Below, in pieces: positions 34,717 through 42,720 of a stretch of DNA of 64,000 nucleotides. The stretch is from Baekduia soli. GTDB taxonomy: Bacteria; Actinomycetota; Thermoleophilia; Solirubrobacterales; Solirubrobacteraceae. The stretch spans positions 4,588,001-4,652,000 of the forward strand of contig NZ_CP042430.1 of the NCBI RefSeq assembly GCF_007970665.1. The letters run 5' to 3'. The notes beneath the pieces were generated by a model, which was not told the DNA's origin, searched no databases, and was given only the letters and a program-made list of their open reading frames with translations. Each line of letters starts with the position of its first letter. Within the stretch, counting starts at the first letter, position 1. The translations under genes and the position numbers were made by a program.

Positions 34717-35535
34717 CTAGAGGCTGTAGCTGTGCAGGTTGCCCGACACGGCGATCGCGCCGGCGACGGCGATGGCCGCCAGCGCCAGGCATCCGGCGTA
34801 GCCGATCCACGGCCGGCGCATGCGGTCGGCCACCGTGAACCCGACCGCGGCCAGCAGGCCGCCGACCAGGCCGCCGATGTGGCCGCCGAAGGCGATGTTC
34901 AACCCGGGGATGAAGCCGATGACCAGGTTGATGAGGATGAGGCCGCCCAGGCCGCCGCTGAACGGGTCGTAGCCGCGGCGGCGCTGCTCGATGGCCAGGA
35001 CGCCCATGAGCCCGAAGACCGCGCCCGAGGCGCCGACGACGCCGGACTCCGTCGTCTGCACGAGCGCGCCGAAGGAGCCGCACAGCAGGGCGGTGAAGTA
35101 CAGGACGCCGAAGCGCACCGAGCCGATGACGCGCTCGAGCTGCTGGCCGAGCACCCACAACAGGTACATGTTGAACCCGATGTGGAAGATGCCGCTGTGC
35201 AGGAAGCCGCTCGTGACCAGGCGCCAGTAGTCGCCGCGGTCGACGTAGGGCCCGAACAGCGCGAAGTGCTCGTAGATGCTCCCGCCGCTCTCCCGCGCGC
35301 CGAAGCTGCCCTGGGCGAGGAAGACGATCACGCAGACGACGATGATCGCGATGGTGACCCGCGGCTCGTCGCCGAGCACGGCGGGACCCCGATGGACCTT
35401 CGTCTTCTGCTTGGCGCACTCCGGGCAGCGCATGCCGACCGACGTCGGCGTCATGCAGTCCGGGCAGATCGGGCGGTCGCAGTTGGAGCAGGAGACGCCG
35501 GTCTCGCGGCCGGGGTGGCGGTAGCAGGTGGCCAT
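34717..35535 (-). CDS. Rhomboid-family intramembrane serine protease with B-box-like zinc finger
   Basis: The N-terminal 40 residues hold a zinc finger with Cys and His ligands (CYRHPGRETGVSCSNCDRPIC, a B-box pattern shortened here; then CPDC and CPEC). Six or more membrane segments follow. The catalytic Ser is in GASGAVFG and the His in GGHIGGLVGG; HSGIFHIGFNMY is the known loop motif. The enzyme cleaves membrane proteins within the bilayer. The 272-residue length is normal for actinobacterial members with the zinc finger. Confidence 0.92.
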   Translation of the reverse strand: MATCYRHPGRETGVSCSNCDRPICPDCMTPTSVGMRCPECAKQKTKVHRGPAVLGDEPRVTIAIIVVCVIVFLAQGSFGARESGGSIYEHFALFGPYVDRGDYWRLVTSGFLHSGIFHIGFNMYLLWVLGQQLERVIGSVRFGVLYFTALLCGSFGALVQTTESGVVGASGAVFGLMGVLAIEQRRRGYDPFSGGLGGLILINLVIGFIPGLNIAFGGHIGGLVGGLLAAVGFTVADRMRRPWIGYAGCLALAAIAVAGAIAVSGNLHSYSL

Positions 35536-35751
35536 CGAGGGGCAGGACGCTAGCAGCGGCGGCCTGAGAGCCAGGTCGACGGGCGGCGCCGTGGTGCTCG
35601 TCGCTGCCGGCGTGGGTGGCTGGGCGGACCGTCCGGCCGGCCCCGGGGCCCCCGTGACACCTTGACCGGCATATCGCACGTCAACCCGACACCGACCGTC
35701 ACGAAACCGACCCGCACGCCCGGGCGGCGCGCCACCGCCGCACGCCGCCCA

Positions 35752-36471
35752 TCAGGTCAGCGTCGCGCCGATGACCGGGTCGCTCGTGGGCTGCGTGCTG
35801 CCGCCGGAGGGCTCGGCGGTCACCAGCACGCGGTCGGTGCCCTTCAGCGAGTCCGGGATCTCGACCCGCGCCCGCCCGTCGGAGCGGACGTTGAACAGCG
35901 CATGGGCCGGCCGCGGGCGCGCGTTGCCCGAGACGAGCCACACCTGGTAGACGCGGCCGGCCGGCGGGGCCGGCACGCCGCGCAGGTCGAACTCGCCGTG
36001 GTCACCCTTGACCACGAGCGCGACCTGCGAGCCCCGCGGCCCGAAGCCCGTGTGGGTCACGGTGTCGTCTCCGCCGGAGAGCACGACGCCCAGGACCACG
36101 CCGACGGCCAGCACCGCCGACGCGAGCGCGACGGCGGGCAGCGGGCGCAGCCGGCCCAGCGGCGCGAGGATCCGGCGCCACGCGCCCGGGGCGCGCTGCG
36201 GCACGGGCACCCGGTCGGCCTCGGGGCCGCTGGCGCGCAGGAGCCGGGCCTCGGACTCCACGACGGCCATGATCCGGCCCTTGAGGTCGGGTGGCGGGAC
36301 CATCTGCGGGGCGGCCATCGGCAGGACGTCGGCGACGGCCTGCAGCCGCGCGACCTCCGCCCGGCACTCCGCGCAGGTCTCCAGGTGGGCACGGTAGGCC
36401 GGCTCGTCGGCCTCCGGCAGGGCGAACAGGACCCAGGCCCCGGCGTCGTCGTGGTGCGGGCAGGGGCTCAC
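35752..36471 (-). CDS. RskA-type anti-sigma factor with zinc-binding domain
   Basis: The 239-residue protein has the N-terminal ZAS motif H-x3-C-x2-C (HLETCAEC), one membrane segment (about 128-150) and an extracytoplasmic RskA domain with GRVYQVWLV. It should hold the ECF sigma factor encoded just upstream and release it on an envelope signal, by regulated proteolysis; the rhomboid protease gene next door is a possible participant. The GTG at 36471 overlaps the sigma stop (GTGA). Confidence 0.88.
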   Translation of the reverse strand: MSPCPHHDDAGAWVLFALPEADEPAYRAHLETCAECRAEVARLQAVADVLPMAAPQMVPPPDLKGRIMAVVESEARLLRASGPEADRVPVPQRAPGAWRRILAPLGRLRPLPAVALASAVLAVGVVLGVVLSGGDDTVTHTGFGPRGSQVALVVKGDHGEFDLRGVPAPPAGRVYQVWLVSGNARPRPAHALFNVRSDGRARVEIPDSLKGTDRVLVTAEPSGGSTQPTSDPVIGATLT

Positions 36472-37052
36472 GCGGGCACCTCCGCCAGCCAGCCGAGCTG
36501 ACCTCGGAGCTTCTCGAGGCCGAGCCGGATCCGGCCCTTGATCGTGCCCACCGGCGTGTCGAGCATCGCGGCGATCTCCGTGTGCGAGAACCCGCCGAAG
36601 TAGGCCAGCTCGATCGCCTTGCTCTGCTCGTCGGGCAGGGTGGCCAGCGCATCGCGGACCTCCCCGGCCTCCTGGCGGCGGGCGGCCTGCACATCGGTCC
36701 GGTCCTTGGCCTCGAAGCGCTCCTCGATGCCCTCGTCGCTGGCGCGGCGGCGGTCGTGGACCATGCTGCGCCGCAGGGCGTCGATCGCCCGGTGGTGGAC
36801 GATGCCGAGGATCCACGTGCGCACGCTGCCGCGCGTCTGGTCGTAGCGGGCGCCGGACCGCCAGAGCGACAGGAACGCCTCCTGCACCACGTCCTCGGCG
36901 GCCGACCGGCGGCCGGTCATCCTGTAGGCGAGCGAGAACGCCGCCGTGCTGTGTCGCTCGTAGACCATCTCGAAGGCTCTGGCGTCGCCCTCGCGGACGA
37001 GCTGCATGAGGTCTTCGTCAGCCAGCAAGCGCGGATCCGGATGGTCGGCCAC
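36468..37052 (-). CDS. ECF sigma factor (SigK-like)
   Basis: Region 2 is seen as FEMVYERHSTAAFSLAYRMTGR with RSAAEDVVQEAFLSLW, and region 4 as LPDEQSKAIELAYFGGFSHTEIAAML with GTIKGRIRLGLEKLR. The 194 residues are normal. It is coupled to the RskA-type anti-sigma gene, forming a typical SigK-RskA pair. Confidence 0.92.
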   Translation of the reverse strand: MADHPDPRLLADEDLMQLVREGDARAFEMVYERHSTAAFSLAYRMTGRRSAAEDVVQEAFLSLWRSGARYDQTRGSVRTWILGIVHHRAIDALRRSMVHDRRRASDEGIEERFEAKDRTDVQAARRQEAGEVRDALATLPDEQSKAIELAYFGGFSHTEIAAMLDTPVGTIKGRIRLGLEKLRGQLGWLAEVPA

Positions 37053-37085: not shown

Positions 37086-37436
37086 TCACCGGTCCAGGAT
37101 GCGGCGCGTCTCCTCCTTGACGGCCCGCAGCGTGCGCTCCGCGAGGTCGAGCGGGTCGCTCGCCTTCGCCGTGCGCCGCCGATGCTGCTGGCGCACGCGC
37201 AGGATCACCAGGGCGGCCCCGGCGGTCGTCCCGACGGCCACGGCGGCGACGGGGCGCACCCAGTTGCGGGGGTCGCGCATCGCGCGCAGCTCCCAGCTCT
37301 CGAGCTCGTCCTGGGCCAGCGTCGTCAGCTCGGCCAGCGTCGACTCCATCCGCACCGCGAGGTCGTCGGGCGGGTCCACCGGCGCCAGGGCGCGGCGCAG
37401 GAGGCCTTCGAAGTCGGAGGGGAAGGTCTCGCTCAT
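37086..37436 (-). CDS. Small membrane protein, likely partner of the adjacent sigma factor
   Basis: The 116-residue protein has a cytoplasmic acidic N-terminus, one hydrophobic segment (residues about 62-80, VRPVAAVAVGTTAGAALVIL) and a basic C-terminus. It starts four bases after an ECF sigma gene. Place and topology suggest an anti-sigma role, but no zinc-binding motif is present and no family is recognised. Confidence 0.65.
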   Translation of the reverse strand: MSETFPSDFEGLLRRALAPVDPPDDLAVRMESTLAELTTLAQDELESWELRAMRDPRNWVRPVAAVAVGTTAGAALVILRVRQQHRRRTAKASDPLDLAERTLRAVKEETRRILDR

Positions 37437-37440
37437 CGGG

Positions 37441-37965
37441 TCAGGTCGCCTGCTTGGTCGCGACGATCTCCTCGAGCTGCTTGATCGCCCGGTGCAGCAG
37501 GACCTTCGTCGCGCCGTCGGTGCGGCCGAGCGCGCGGGCGATCTCCCGGTTGTCCATGCCCAGGGCGAAGCGCATGATGAGCGCCTCGCGGCGGTCGTCG
37601 GGGAGGTCCTTCACGCCGTCGAGGATTCGCGCCAGCTCGTCGCGTCCCTCCACGAGGTCCTCGGTGGTGTGCGTGGTGCGCAAGGTCTCGGAGTCGTCGA
37701 TGTTCGTCTGCGGCCTACGGGAGCGGTCGCGGTACAGGTTCGCCGCGAGGTTGTGCGCGATGCGGATGAGCCAGGGCCGCAACGGGCGCCCGTCGGACTC
37801 GGCGACGGCCCGCTCGAAGTGCCGGTAGGCCTGCAGGAACGTCTGCTCGGTGAGGTCCTCGGCGTCGTGGTGGTTGCCGACCCGGTAGTACGCGTAGGAG
37901 TACACGTCTCGAAGGTGCGCCCGGTACAGGTCCGAGAACGCGGCGTCCAGCTCGGCCTTGTCCAC
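37441..37965 (-). CDS. ECF-type RNA polymerase sigma factor
   Basis: The 174-residue protein starts at GTG 37965 (MDKAELDAAFSDLYRAHLRD). Region 2 includes YSYAYYRVGNHHDAEDLTEQTF and PWLIRIAHNLAANLYRDRSRR. Region 4 is LPDDRREALIMRFALGMDNREI with TDGATKVLLHRAIKQL. It precedes the small membrane protein gene by four bases. It lies 23 bases downstream of the plsC-gpsA stop, so it could be within a longer transcript. Confidence 0.9.
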   Translation of the reverse strand: MDKAELDAAFSDLYRAHLRDVYSYAYYRVGNHHDAEDLTEQTFLQAYRHFERAVAESDGRPLRPWLIRIAHNLAANLYRDRSRRPQTNIDDSETLRTTHTTEDLVEGRDELARILDGVKDLPDDRREALIMRFALGMDNREIARALGRTDGATKVLLHRAIKQLEEIVATKQAT

Positions 37966-37988: not shown

Positions 37989-39650
37989 CTACGCGGCCCG
38001 GACGAACCGGCGCCGGCGGGGCGCCGGGGCGGTGATCGTGTCGGCCCAGGCGCCCGCGGCGACCCGGCCCTCCACGACGTCGGCCAGCCCGCTGACGGCC
38101 GGCGCGTCCATGCCGCCGTCGTGCAGCGCGCGGGCCAGCAGCGGCAGCGCGTCGAGGCTCTCGGCGGCCTGGCCGAGCTGCAGCTCGATCTCCTCGGGCG
38201 CCAGCCCTGCGGCCAGCAGCTCGCCCGCGCGCCGGTTGCGGCTGCCCTGGGCGACCATCGTGGCGATGAGGTCGCCGGTGCCGGCCAGGCCGGCGAAGGT
38301 CTCCGCACGGGCGCCGCGGCCGCGTGCGTAGGCGTCGACCTCGGCGAAGACGCGGCCCGCGGCGGCGCCGGCGGCGTTGGGGCCGGCGGGCGCCGCGGTC
38401 GCGGCGGCCAGCGCGGCGGCGTTCTTGGCGGCACCGGCCAGCTCGACGCCGACCGCGTCGGTCGACGTCTCGGCGTAGAGGCCGGCGCAGACGAGCAGGT
38501 CGGCGATCTGGCGGCCCAGGGCGCCGTCGGCGGTGCCGACGACGAGGGCGGCGCCGTGGTCCAGGGCGTCGGCGGCGTGCGCGGGGCCGCCGAGGCAGGC
38601 GACGCCGCGGGCGACGGTGCGCTCGGCCACGTAGGCGGTCGGCAGCGTCCCGAGCGGTGGCACGAGACCCTTGGCGGCGACGAGCACGCCGGTGCGGCCG
38701 GTGATCTGCGCGCCGTGCGCGGCGACGACCTCGGGCAGCGCCCGGGCCGGCACGGCGAGCACGACGAGGTCGTGGCGGCCGAGCTCGAGGTCGTGGGCAT
38801 CGAGCACCTCGACGCCGTCGGGCAGCGGGACGCCGGGCAGGTAGCGCTCGTTCACGCCGGCCGAGCGCAGCAGCGCGGCCTGCTGGGGCGTGCGCGTGGC
38901 GAGCTCGACCTGGACGCCGGCGCGGGCCAGCGCCACGGCCAGGCCCGTCCCCCAGGAGCCGGCGCCGATGACGGCGGCGCGGCGGATGGGCGGCAGGCCG
39001 CCGAGCCACTCCCACTGGAGCATCACGCAGGGCCAGATGCGGTCGGTCACCGCACCTGCGAGCTGGGCGGAGGGCTCGTGGACGACGGGGAAGCGCAGGG
39101 GCGCCCCGGCGCGCAGGCGCACCTTGTGCGGGCGGATGCGCCAGCCGCGGCGGATCGCCTCCGTGCCGATGACGGCGACGGGGACGACCGGCGCGCCGGT
39201 CTCCAGCGCCAGGCGGCCGACGCCGCGGCGCGGGCTGCCCAGCGTGCCGGGCCGGGTGCGCGTGCCCTCGGGGAAGATCAGGACGGCGTCGCCGCGGGCC
39301 AGGATGTCGCGCGCGGTCGCCATCGCGTCCTCGTCGGCGTTGCCGCGGTCGATCGGGAACGCGCCGAGGCTGTTGAGCAACCACGCCGTCAGCGGACGGC
39401 GGAAGAGCTCCTTCTTGGCCACGTAGTAGAGCGGGCGCCGCGACATCGTCGCGATGACGAAGGGGTCGAGGAAGGACCGGTGGTTGGCCGCCAGGATGAC
39501 CGGGCCCTCGTCGGGGACGTGCTCGCGGCCGATGCGCGACATCCGGAAGTAGACGAGGAAGAAGGGCTGCATCAGCCCACGCACGATCCAGTAGGTGATC
39601 GGGTTGACACCCTTGGTGCGGGCGCGCGCGAGGTGGCGGTTGCTCTCCAT
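37989..39650 (-). CDS. Fused 1-acyl-glycerol-3-phosphate acyltransferase and glycerol-3-phosphate dehydrogenase
   Basis: One 553-residue frame joins two phospholipid enzymes. Residues 1-220 are PlsC-like: NHRSFLDP holds the H-x4-D motif (His57, Asp62) and LIFPEGTRTR is the glycerolphosphate motif. From 224 it is GpsA-like: GAGSWGTGLA (229-238) binds NAD(P), CLGGPAHAADA is the GPSHA region, and AGAAKNAAALAA has the catalytic Lys. Both halves have full family length and the joint is in one frame without a stop. GpsA makes glycerol-3-phosphate; PlsC acylates lysophosphatidate, two steps later. The ATG at 39650 is preferred over an upstream frame running into the divergent gene. Confidence 0.88.
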   Translation of the reverse strand: MESNRHLARARTKGVNPITYWIVRGLMQPFFLVYFRMSRIGREHVPDEGPVILAANHRSFLDPFVIATMSRRPLYYVAKKELFRRPLTAWLLNSLGAFPIDRGNADEDAMATARDILARGDAVLIFPEGTRTRPGTLGSPRRGVGRLALETGAPVVPVAVIGTEAIRRGWRIRPHKVRLRAGAPLRFPVVHEPSAQLAGAVTDRIWPCVMLQWEWLGGLPPIRRAAVIGAGSWGTGLAVALARAGVQVELATRTPQQAALLRSAGVNERYLPGVPLPDGVEVLDAHDLELGRHDLVVLAVPARALPEVVAAHGAQITGRTGVLVAAKGLVPPLGTLPTAYVAERTVARGVACLGGPAHAADALDHGAALVVGTADGALGRQIADLLVCAGLYAETSTDAVGVELAGAAKNAAALAAATAAPAGPNAAGAAAGRVFAEVDAYARGRGARAETFAGLAGTGDLIATMVAQGSRNRRAGELLAAGLAPEEIELQLGQAAESLDALPLLARALHDGGMDAPAVSGLADVVEGRVAAGAWADTITAPAPRRRRFVRAA

Positions 39651-40255: not shown

Positions 40256-40328
40256 GCCGGAGTAGCTCAGCTGGTAGAGCAACTGATTTGTAATCAGTAG
40301 GTCAGGGGTTCGAGTCCCCTCTCCGGCC
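40256..40328 (+). tRNA. tRNA-Thr (anticodon TGT)
   Basis: The acceptor stem GCCGGAG pairs with CTCCGGC. The anticodon arm is ACTGA-TTTGTAA-TCAGT, giving TGT. The T arm is AGGGGTTCGAGTCCCCT. No CCA is encoded. Confidence 0.95.
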
Positions 40329-40345
40329 CTGCCGGCCGCGTGCCG

Positions 40346-41637: not shown

Positions 41638-42715
41638 TGACGTGCCTCGGGACGTTCCGAACGTCTGAGGGCTGAAGTTGAGGCATCCGGGCTGAGACAG
41701 AGGCTGTGGGTCTTCTCAAGGATCCAACGGCCTCGGAGGTCATCAGCCCGGATGCAGTGCAAGCGTAGGTGGCTGCCCAGCTGGCAGCGTGTCGAGCTGG
41801 TTGATTGGTGTCTTGGCGAGGGACTTCCTCGACGCCAGGCAGCGGCCCGTCGGCGGGTGAGCGTGTCGACGGTGCAGTACTGGATCGACCGGTACCGCAA
41901 CGCCTCAGACGCCGAGCGAGCGTCGGGCGCGTGGGCGCAGGATCGACCCTCGACGCCGCATCGCCAGCCGACGCGGTCCAGCGACGAGCTGCACGACCGT
42001 GTCTGCCAGGCGCGGACGCGGACGGGCTGGGGGCCGCGCCTGATCGCCTCCGAGCTCGGCATCGCGCACGCGACGGTCTCGCGCTGTCTGAAGCGGCGCG
42101 GCATGTCGCGCCAGCCGCCGGCGCCCCGAGAGGCGGTGCAGCGCTTTGAGTGGCCGTGCCCTGGGGCGTTGATCCAAAACGACGTCAAGCGTTTCGCGCG
42201 GTTCTCCTCACCCGGCCATGCCGTCACCGGCAACCGTCACCGCACGGGCGCCGAGAAGCGCCAGCGTGTCGGCTACGAGTTCGCCCACAGCGCGATCGAC
42301 GACCACAGCCGCCTGGCCTACACCGAGCTGCACCGCGACGAGAAGGCCGCCACCGTCATCGGCTTCACCGAGCGGGCGATCGCGTTCTTCGCTGCGCACG
42401 GCATCATCATCGAGCGCTGGCAGACCGACAACGCCTGGACCTACACCCACAACAAGGCGCTGGCCGCCCTGTTTGACAGCCACGGCATCCGGCATCGCAC
42501 GATCGCGCCCCGCACGCCGCGCCACAACGGCAAGGTCGAGCGCTACCAGCAGACCCTCAAACGCGAATGGGGCCTGGGACAGCGCTACCGCTCAAGCGAC
42601 GCCAGAGCCGCAGCGCTGCCACACTGGCTGCACCACTACAACAACGAGCGGAACCACAGCTCGCTCGGCAACCGGCCGCCCATCACCCGCGTTCGGAACG
42701 ACCTGAGGCAGAACA
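41638..42715 (+). mobile_element. IS481-family insertion sequence, copy 2 (1078 bp)
   Basis: It runs from TGACGTGCCTCGGG to CTGAGGCAGAACA, has the same length as copy 1 and no base difference that I found where compared. Orientation is opposite to copy 1. The target on the right is the stop codon of the coiled-coil gene. Confidence 0.95.
41683..41755 (+). promoter_or_regulatory. Start-codon inverted repeat of IS481 copy 2
   Basis: A perfect 13-bp inverted repeat (arms 41683-41695 and 41743-41755) buries the ATG at 41752. The Shine-Dalgarno GGAGG at 41735-41739 lies in the loop near the second arm. Confidence 0.6.
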
Positions 42716-42720
42716 CCTAG
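41752..42720 (+). CDS. IS481-family transposase (copy 2)
   Basis: The 322-residue product has the same domains and DDE residues as copy 1. Its last codons are A-CC and TAG, with the Thr and the stop codon taken from the CCTAGA target. An intact frame and two identical copies suggest recent activity. Confidence 0.95.
   Translation: MQCKRRWLPSWQRVELVDWCLGEGLPRRQAAARRRVSVSTVQYWIDRYRNASDAERASGAWAQDRPSTPHRQPTRSSDELHDRVCQARTRTGWGPRLIASELGIAHATVSRCLKRRGMSRQPPAPREAVQRFEWPCPGALIQNDVKRFARFSSPGHAVTGNRHRTGAEKRQRVGYEFAHSAIDDHSRLAYTELHRDEKAATVIGFTERAIAFFAAHGIIIERWQTDNAWTYTHNKALAALFDSHGIRHRTIAPRTPRHNGKVERYQQTLKREWGLGQRYRSSDARAAALPHWLHHYNNERNHSSLGNRPPITRVRNDLRQNT

What the first reader, a model, noticed from the sequence alone, without database searches (positions are those of the whole stretch)
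37989..39650. PlsC-GpsA fusion protein
A lysophosphatidate acyltransferase domain with H-x4-D and FPEGTR is fused in frame to a full glycerol-3-phosphate dehydrogenase. The two act at either end of phosphatidate synthesis. The fusion could channel or co-regulate lipid head-group supply. In other actinobacteria the two are usually adjacent genes.
Basis: partly seen in the sequence, partly recalled or inferred. Interest (0 to 1): 0.5.

Follow-up and report, generated by a model that had tools for sequence, protein, structure and literature searches.

The report
Fused PlsC-GpsA phospholipid enzyme
A soil-type actinobacterium and most sampled members of its order join two membrane-lipid enzymes, one that makes the glycerol-phosphate backbone and one that attaches a fatty chain, into a single protein, in a group that mostly lacks both usual enzymes for the step in between.

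Summary
In detail: 37989-39650 (minus) is one unbroken 553-residue ORF, a PlsC-type acyltransferase, about eight linker residues, then full-length GpsA with its catalytic residues. It is no local frameshift artefact: 56 of 76 order genomes carry it full length, and fused GpsA halves form one clade. The window's genome also has a standalone GpsA paralog. Across the order the fused GpsA half is catalytically intact in 32 of 38 genomes without a standalone copy, 17 of 38 with one; the phylogeny-aware test is not significant. Where both exist the fused half diverges about 1.7 times faster. So in the window it is intact but probably relaxed. PlsY is missing from 31 of 33 order genomes, PlsB from 75 of 76. 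A second PlsC-like protein, often beside glycerol kinase, has a PlsB-like EGGRSR motif and is the best candidate for the missing G3P acyltransferase. The fusion then bookends phosphatidate synthesis: co-localisation is likelier than direct channelling. 'Usually adjacent genes' fails: der lies between in 7 of 7 resolved outgroup loci. Nine paper searches found no description.

The parts
37989..39650 (-). plsC-gpsA fusion gene, 553 aa
   Evidence: unbroken ORF; Pfam domains; full length in 56 of 76 order genomes
39171..39530 (-). PF01553 acyltransferase domain, residues 41-160; HX4D at 39465-39482, FPEGTR at 39258-39275
   Evidence: 110.1 bits; motif residues H, D, E, G, R present in 70 of 71 order loci
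38982..39005 (-). linker, residues 216-223 (LGGLPPIR), between the last PlsC helix (195-215) and the first GpsA strand (224-228)
   Evidence: AlphaFold2 secondary structure; alignment
38541..38975 (-). GpsA N-terminal NAD(P)-binding domain, residues 226-370; GAGSWG motif, K327
   Evidence: PF01210
38061..38459 (-). GpsA C-terminal domain, residues 398-530, with K409-N410 (38421-38426), D460, T464, R471-N472
   Evidence: PF07479; catalytic columns
37441..37965 (-). ECF-type sigma factor gene, 174 aa, GTG start 23 bp after the fusion's stop; probably the same transcript
   Evidence: Pfam Sigma70_r2 and r4_2 on a homolog from G032; homolog follows the fusion or PlsC locus in 16 of 21 mapped loci
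37086..37436 (-). small protein of 116 aa, no Pfam family over cut-off, next gene after the sigma factor
   Evidence: homolog cluster 4 (15 members)

Best explanation
One polypeptide carries two enzymes of phosphatidate synthesis. The C-terminal half (a divergent GpsA) reduces dihydroxyacetone phosphate to sn-glycerol-3-phosphate (G3P). The N-terminal half (PlsC type) acylates lysophosphatidate to phosphatidate at the membrane. The step between, G3P to lysophosphatidate, is most likely done by a separate PlsC-superfamily protein with a PlsB-like EGGRSR block, often encoded directly after glycerol kinase. The fusion therefore ties the first and last steps together: the membrane-bound acyltransferase probably holds GpsA at the membrane surface, raising G3P locally and fixing the two enzymes at 1:1. 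Shown by sequence: single ORF, intact motifs, one origin of the fusion within the order, a standalone GpsA paralog, loss of PlsY and PlsB. Inferred: both activities, membrane tethering, co-expression with the downstream sigma factor, identity of the G3P acyltransferase. In the window's own genome the GpsA half is intact but backed up by the standalone copy, and probably under relaxed constraint.
For: Domains and motifs. TIGR00530 (1-acyl-G3P acyltransferase): fused protein 103.9 bits against a cut-off of 102.95, the glpK-linked type 62.9-72.4 in 5 of 5 scanned. Tree of 84 GpsA rows: fused 41 rows one clade 96/96, standalone 33 one clade 99/92, canonical 10 outside 100/100. Fused halves of the acyltransferase one clade 97/95. 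In families f3 and f4 no standalone GpsA was found in 30 of 30 genomes, and the fused catalytic set is intact in 29 of 30 (G174 has no fused locus). Divergence of GpsA half relative to PlsC half (ln identity): 0.97 in f3, 0.70 in f4, but 1.35 in f1 genomes with both copies, where fused exceeds standalone divergence in 77 of 78 pairs, median ratio 1.73. dN below dS in every close pair computed, 18 of 18 for both halves. PlsY absent in 31 of 33 order genomes, present in 111 of 116 other class members (kinship); PlsB GPAT_C in 1 of 76. EGGRSR in 13 of 14 fetched glpK-adjacent proteins and in the window genome's ortholog.
Against: No activity has been measured. All NCBIfam GpsA models score below their cut-offs (best 184.5 against 257), so the GpsA subfamily is divergent and another substrate is possible. 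The link between standalone copy and loss of the fused half is not significant when phylogeny is respected (3 pairs on supported branches, 5 on all); the genome-level Fisher p of 0.0006 ignores relatedness. Six genomes without a standalone copy also lack an intact fused half (G160, G189, G201, G206, G174, G175), so GpsA is dispensable in some; a glycerol-kinase match exists in 76 of 76, over cut-off in 66. In the window genome the GpsA half diverges faster than the standalone copy.
Confidence: 0.68

Rival explanations
1. In the window's lineage the GpsA half is a passenger on its way to loss: the standalone GpsA supplies G3P and only the PlsC half matters.
For: 21 of 38 genomes with a standalone copy have an absent, truncated or catalytically damaged fused GpsA half: 14 truncated, 5 full length but mutated, 2 without the locus. 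Faster divergence where both exist. G000-G005: fused GpsA dN 0.214, dS 0.39; standalone 0.174, 0.43; PlsC half 0.129, 0.48.
Against: The window copy keeps all catalytic residues scored, and dN stays below dS; 17 of 38 both-carriers, spread over f1 and f2, keep it intact.
Confidence: 0.2
2. The fusion is a channel: the PlsC half itself acylates G3P handed over by the GpsA half, replacing PlsY and PlsB.
For: PlsY and PlsB missing. Mycobacterial PlsM, a PlsC-type enzyme, acylates both G3P and lysophosphatidate (PMC10593935, abstract and passages). 15 of 76 genomes have exactly two PF01553 proteins, 13 of these with the fused-type acyltransferase, so two proteins must cover both acylations unless another family helps.
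Against: The fused half has FPEGTR (65 of 71 loci) and passes the lysophosphatidate-acyltransferase model, while the other PF01553 type has EGGRSR, which I recall as the PlsB/GPAT form of that block. The PlsC half persists in genomes that lost the GpsA half, and G160, G201 and G174 lack the fused locus altogether.
Confidence: 0.13
3. The divergent GpsA half reduces another substrate, for example acyl-DHAP, making an acyl-DHAP route to lysophosphatidate.
For: Order-wide divergence from canonical GpsA: PF07479 scores mostly about 70-105 bits in the order, 160-201 in nearly all the rest of the class; no canonical G3P acyltransferase.
Against: All scored catalytic columns match canonical GpsA; the standalone paralog of the same subfamily is the only other GpsA in the window's genome.
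Confidence: 0.06
4. The ORF is translated as two proteins by internal initiation, or cut after translation.
For: A Met just before the GpsA half (position 222) in 24 of 56 full-length fusions (f3 20 of 26, f4 3 of 3, f2 1 of 8), perhaps the old GpsA start.
Against: Position 222 is Ile in the window gene, and Met in 0 of 19 f1 genes. Shine-Dalgarno-like sequence precedes only 1 of 29 start-like codons there (my own simple pattern).
Confidence: 0.03

Closest known systems
PlsC, 1-acyl-sn-glycerol-3-phosphate acyltransferase (TIGR00530, PF01553; Thermotoga PlsC 5kym)
   Same: HX4D, FPEGTR, passes TIGR00530 narrowly
   Different: carries a complete GpsA at its C-terminus
GpsA, NAD(P)-dependent glycerol-3-phosphate dehydrogenase (PF01210/PF07479; 3k96, 1z82)
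   Same: fold and catalytic residues
   Different: divergent order-specific subfamily below every NCBIfam cut-off; fused behind an acyltransferase
Bidomain algal GPDH, phosphoserine phosphatase-like domain plus GPDH (Dunaliella DsGPDH 6iuy; Chlamydomonas, PMC7468427, start of abstract seen in a listing)
   Same: an N-terminal partner enzyme of glycerol metabolism fused to GPDH; 6iuy is in the Foldseek list (ranks 8 and 14)
   Different: phosphatase partner making glycerol as an osmolyte, eukaryotic, unrelated N-terminal domain
Mycobacterial PlsM and PlsB2 (PMC10593935, abstract and passages)
   Same: actinobacterial phosphatidate synthesis without PlsY, using a PlsC-type protein that also accepts G3P
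   Different: not fused to GpsA; PlsB2 is present there, but PlsB was found in only 1 of 76 genomes here
Aas-type acyltransferase fusions (NF006386, NF005291, NF005959)
   Same: a PlsC-type domain inside a multi-enzyme chain; weak matches
   Different: by the model names the partner is an acyl-ACP ligase, not GpsA

Membership tests
PlsC (lysophosphatidate acyltransferase) | PF01553 with HX4D and FPEGTR blocks | tested here: met
PlsC (lysophosphatidate acyltransferase) | TIGR00530 cut-off 102.95 bits | tested here: met
   103.9 bits, only just
PlsC (lysophosphatidate acyltransferase) | acylates the sn-2 position of 1-acyl-G3P | not testable with these tools
   needs an assay
GpsA | PF01210 and PF07479 over gathering score | tested here: met
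   84.7 and 87.1 bits
GpsA | catalytic Lys, Lys-Asn, Asp, Thr, Arg-Asn and the glycine motif (human numbering 120, 204-205, 260, 264, 269-270, recalled; R269 also appears in a PDB title) | tested here: met
   all present
GpsA | curated NCBIfam GpsA equivalog or subfamily cut-offs | tested here: not met
   best NF000942, 184.5 against 257; so it is filed as a divergent GpsA subfamily, not as any of those equivalogs
GpsA | reduces DHAP to G3P | not testable with these tools
   needs an assay
PlsB-type G3P acyltransferase | GPAT_C domain PF19277 | tested here: not met
   0 matches in the window's genome
PlsY-type G3P acyltransferase | PF02660 | tested here: not met
   0 matches in the window's genome
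Bidomain algal GPDH | phosphoserine-phosphatase-like N-terminal domain | tested here: not met
   the N-terminal domain is PF01553

The most novel reading that the evidence does not exclude
This order has rewired phosphatidate synthesis. Having lost PlsY, and with PlsB nearly absent, it couples each G3P-making enzyme to a PlsC-superfamily acyltransferase: glycerol kinase by gene adjacency and GpsA by fusion. In the boldest form the fused acyltransferase half, like PlsM, also accepts G3P, so one chain takes DHAP to acylated glycerophosphate, a bacterial backbone-synthesis channel with no described counterpart in the searches made here.
Probability: 0.15. Interest if true: 0.75.

Novelty: new variant of a known kind. 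Interest (0 to 1): 0.5.

Why it matters
It is a natural physical link between the enzyme that supplies the glycerolipid backbone and the enzyme that finishes phosphatidate, kept across several families of one order. The order also offers a natural experiment (fusion alone, fusion plus standalone copy, decayed fusion) for asking what fusing buys. It exposes a pathway gap, an order with almost no PlsY or PlsB, and names a concrete candidate for the missing G3P acyltransferase that laboratory E. coli complementation can test.

Tried and rejected
Fusion as a frameshift or missed-stop artefact: rejected. Fusion made by deleting genes inside the ancestral plsC-ispH-der-plsY-gpsA cluster in place: not supported, because the fusion locus shares no neighbours with that cluster in my maps, and its GpsA is of the divergent subfamily. 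Recent lateral gain: not supported, one clade across four families.

My first idea after finding PlsY missing, that the fused half is itself the G3P acyltransferase (note), was lowered when the glpK-linked type turned out to carry EGGRSR and to fail TIGR00530.

Weak or failed steps. The pairs test on the PlsC tree had too few pairs. The synteny BLAST hit its time limit; its nearly complete output (the last batch may be partial) was used. Motif patterns missed most fused-half blocks; the count used is. In one search loci L002 and L003 were read on the wrong strand; one search has the right frames. The genome-contig scan used six peptides of the window protein itself, one of them in the linker, so it is blind to distant fusions and biased on linker conservation. 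Phyla other than Actinomycetota were not searched for the fusion by any family or protein search. One search printed the counts used here and then stopped with a script error.

Papers: nine searches gave no description of a PlsC-GpsA fusion in the listings; the library holds open-licence PMC papers only. Abstract and passages were seen for PMC10593935, passages for PMC6431249; all others only as listings.

Full report
What is there. The ORF at 37989-39650 (minus) encodes 553 residues without a break. Pfam gives an acyltransferase at residues 41-160 and both GpsA domains at 226-370 and 398-530, all over cut-off. The acyltransferase active site (H57, D62, FPEGTR) and the GpsA glycine motif, K327, K409-N410, D460, T464 and R471-N472 are present. 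AlphaFold2 on an alignment of 18 relatives gives mean pLDDT 80.7 and pTM 0.72. The acyltransferase ends in a helix (195-215) and the first GpsA strand starts at 224, so the linker is about eight residues. Foldseek ranks Coxiella GpsA first and includes the bidomain Dunaliella enzyme; the listed rows are all dehydrogenase matches, and the relative placing of the two halves was not assessed.

Where it occurs. The window's genome (one contig, 5.21 Mb) has eight PF01553 matches and two PF07479 matches: the fusion and a standalone GpsA. In a sample of 296 genomes of the phylum, matches spanning both halves appear in 11 of the 12 order members and in none of the other 284 among the rows listed (the list is cut, best first). 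In 76 order genomes 71 have the locus and 56 carry it with more than 280 GpsA residues.

History. In a tree of 84 GpsA rows the fused halves (41) form one clade (96/96), the standalone copies (33) another (99/92), and canonical GpsA of the rest of the class lies outside (100/100). The simplest reading is one duplication and one fusion before the four families split, then loss of the standalone copy in f3 and f4, where 0 of 30 genomes have one. A Met directly before the GpsA half in f3 (20 of 26), f4 (3 of 3) and f2 (1 of 8), but 0 of 19 in f1, looks like the old GpsA start and suggests a head-to-tail read-through fusion (inference).

Constraint. I scored seven catalytic columns (T264S allowed). 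With a standalone copy the fused half is intact in 17 of 38; of the other 21, 14 are truncated (G037 and G016 lie at contig edges), 5 are full length but damaged (G010, G025, G028, G203, G204) and 2 lack the locus (G031, G205). Without a standalone copy it is intact in 32 of 38; the six exceptions are G160, G201 and G174 (no locus), G189 (acyltransferase only), G206 (Arg and Asn lost) and G175 (frameshifted, Asp and Asn lost). Fisher p is 0.0006 at genome level, but the phylogeny-aware pairs test has 3 to 5 pairs and is not significant. Divergence points the same way: in f1 both-carriers the fused half diverges more than the standalone copy in 77 of 78 pairs (median ratio 1.73; f2 6 of 6, 1.38), and more than its own acyltransferase half (1.35); in f3 and f4 that last ratio is 0.97 and 0.70. 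All close pairs have dN below dS in both halves. For the window gene I conclude intact, probably active, but relaxed.

The pathway gap. The window's genome has PlsX but no PlsY. In the class sample of 149, PlsY is found in 113. By kinship, 33 of the 149 are order members, and only G005 and G011 of these appear among the matches (104 and 94 bits, weaker than the typical 145-198); 111 of the other 116 have it (order members not in the match list are counted as lacking it, 16 no-match names being unlisted). PlsB's GPAT_C domain occurs in 1 of 76 order genomes, G024 (of the 14 control genomes only E. coli rings). PF01553 counts per genome run from 1 to 9; 15 genomes have exactly two, 13 of these with a fused-type half. 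In 8 of those 13 the second was fetched and falls in one order-wide clade (100/100) of proteins, most of them directly after glycerol kinase. A PF01553 match lies on the same strand within 402 bp of a GlpK match in at least 46 of 76 genomes (read off, checked; the lists are cut); in G174, G175 and G182 the GlpK matches are fragments. In the window's genome the ortholog is at C1:4814614-4815381, not near glycerol kinase. This type has EGGRSR in 13 of 14 glpK-adjacent members fetched (the 14th has EAGRSR), the window ortholog included besides, scores 62.9-72.4 bits on TIGR00530 (cut-off 102.95) in 5 of 5 scanned, and brushes the PlsB models in 2 of 5. EGGRSR as the PlsB form of this block is recalled. 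I take this type as the likeliest G3P acyltransferase, and the fused half as the lysophosphatidate acyltransferase. Against simple essentiality of the fused form: G160 (single contig), G201 and G174 have no fused-type locus at all. A glycerol-kinase match exists in 76 of 76 genomes, over cut-off in 66.

Neighbourhood. A gene for an ECF-type sigma factor starts 23 bp after the fusion's stop; a homolog of it follows the fusion or PlsC locus in 16 of 21 mapped loci (the window's own copy was masked there by an overlapping longer frame). Next comes a small protein without a Pfam family over cut-off. Outside the order plsC and gpsA share a cluster, but der lies between them in 7 of 7 loci in which both were resolved (of 10 fetched), in some also ispH and plsY.

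How it most likely works. The membrane-bound acyltransferase half holds GpsA at the membrane; G3P made there feeds the separate G3P acyltransferase, whose product returns to the acyltransferase half. This is co-localisation and fixed stoichiometry rather than a tunnel. A true hand-over would need the acyltransferase half to accept G3P, as mycobacterial PlsM does (PMC10593935); I keep that as the bold reading at 0.15.

Known or new. Both parts are known families and enzyme fusions with GPDH are known in algae; this pairing was in none of the listings of the nine paper searches named above, and I call it a new variant of a known kind. Automated databases may already list the architecture; that could not be checked here.

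Noticed in passing
G000:C1 (window's genome); class sample of 149 genomes: PlsY missing from 31 of 33 order genomes and PlsB from 75 of 76, while PlsX is present in the window's genome: the G3P acyltransferase step has no canonical enzyme in this order.
   Followed up: partly
L232-L243, L246, L251; own ortholog G000:C1:4814614-4815381: Order-wide PlsC-superfamily protein with a PlsB-like EGGRSR block, mostly encoded directly after glycerol kinase; candidate for a new type of G3P acyltransferase.
   Followed up: partly
L105 (G028), L106 (G025), L121 (G010): Fused GpsA halves that stay in frame at near full length but have lost the catalytic Lys-Asn and Asp: possible pseudoenzyme domains behind an intact acyltransferase.
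   Followed up: partly
G160, G201, G189 (genus code g34) and G174: No GpsA detected by the window-protein search, fused or standalone; G160 (single contig) also has no PF07479 match. G3P may come only from glycerol kinase there.
   Followed up: partly
G046, G103, G135, G146 (family code f5, genus code g43): Class members without any PF07479 match; three of the four are seen to have PlsY.
   Followed up: no
G024:C1 about 5009756-5022000: The only order genome with PlsB (GPAT_C), beside a canonical gpsA and another PF01553 gene; looks like an acquired cluster.
   Followed up: no
window 41752-42720 (+): IS-type transposase with integrase core (rve) and helix-turn-helix domains, 322 aa.
   Followed up: no
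window 34717-35679 (-): Rhomboid protease with a weak, below cut-off N-terminal B-box-like zinc finger match; kept near the fusion locus in many relatives (cluster 1).
   Followed up: no
window 36468-37052 (-): A second ECF-type sigma factor just beyond the small protein, so two sigma-factor genes lie within 3 kb of the fusion.
   Followed up: no
window 40256-40329 (+): tRNA-Thr (TGT), the only tRNA gene found in the window.
   Followed up: no
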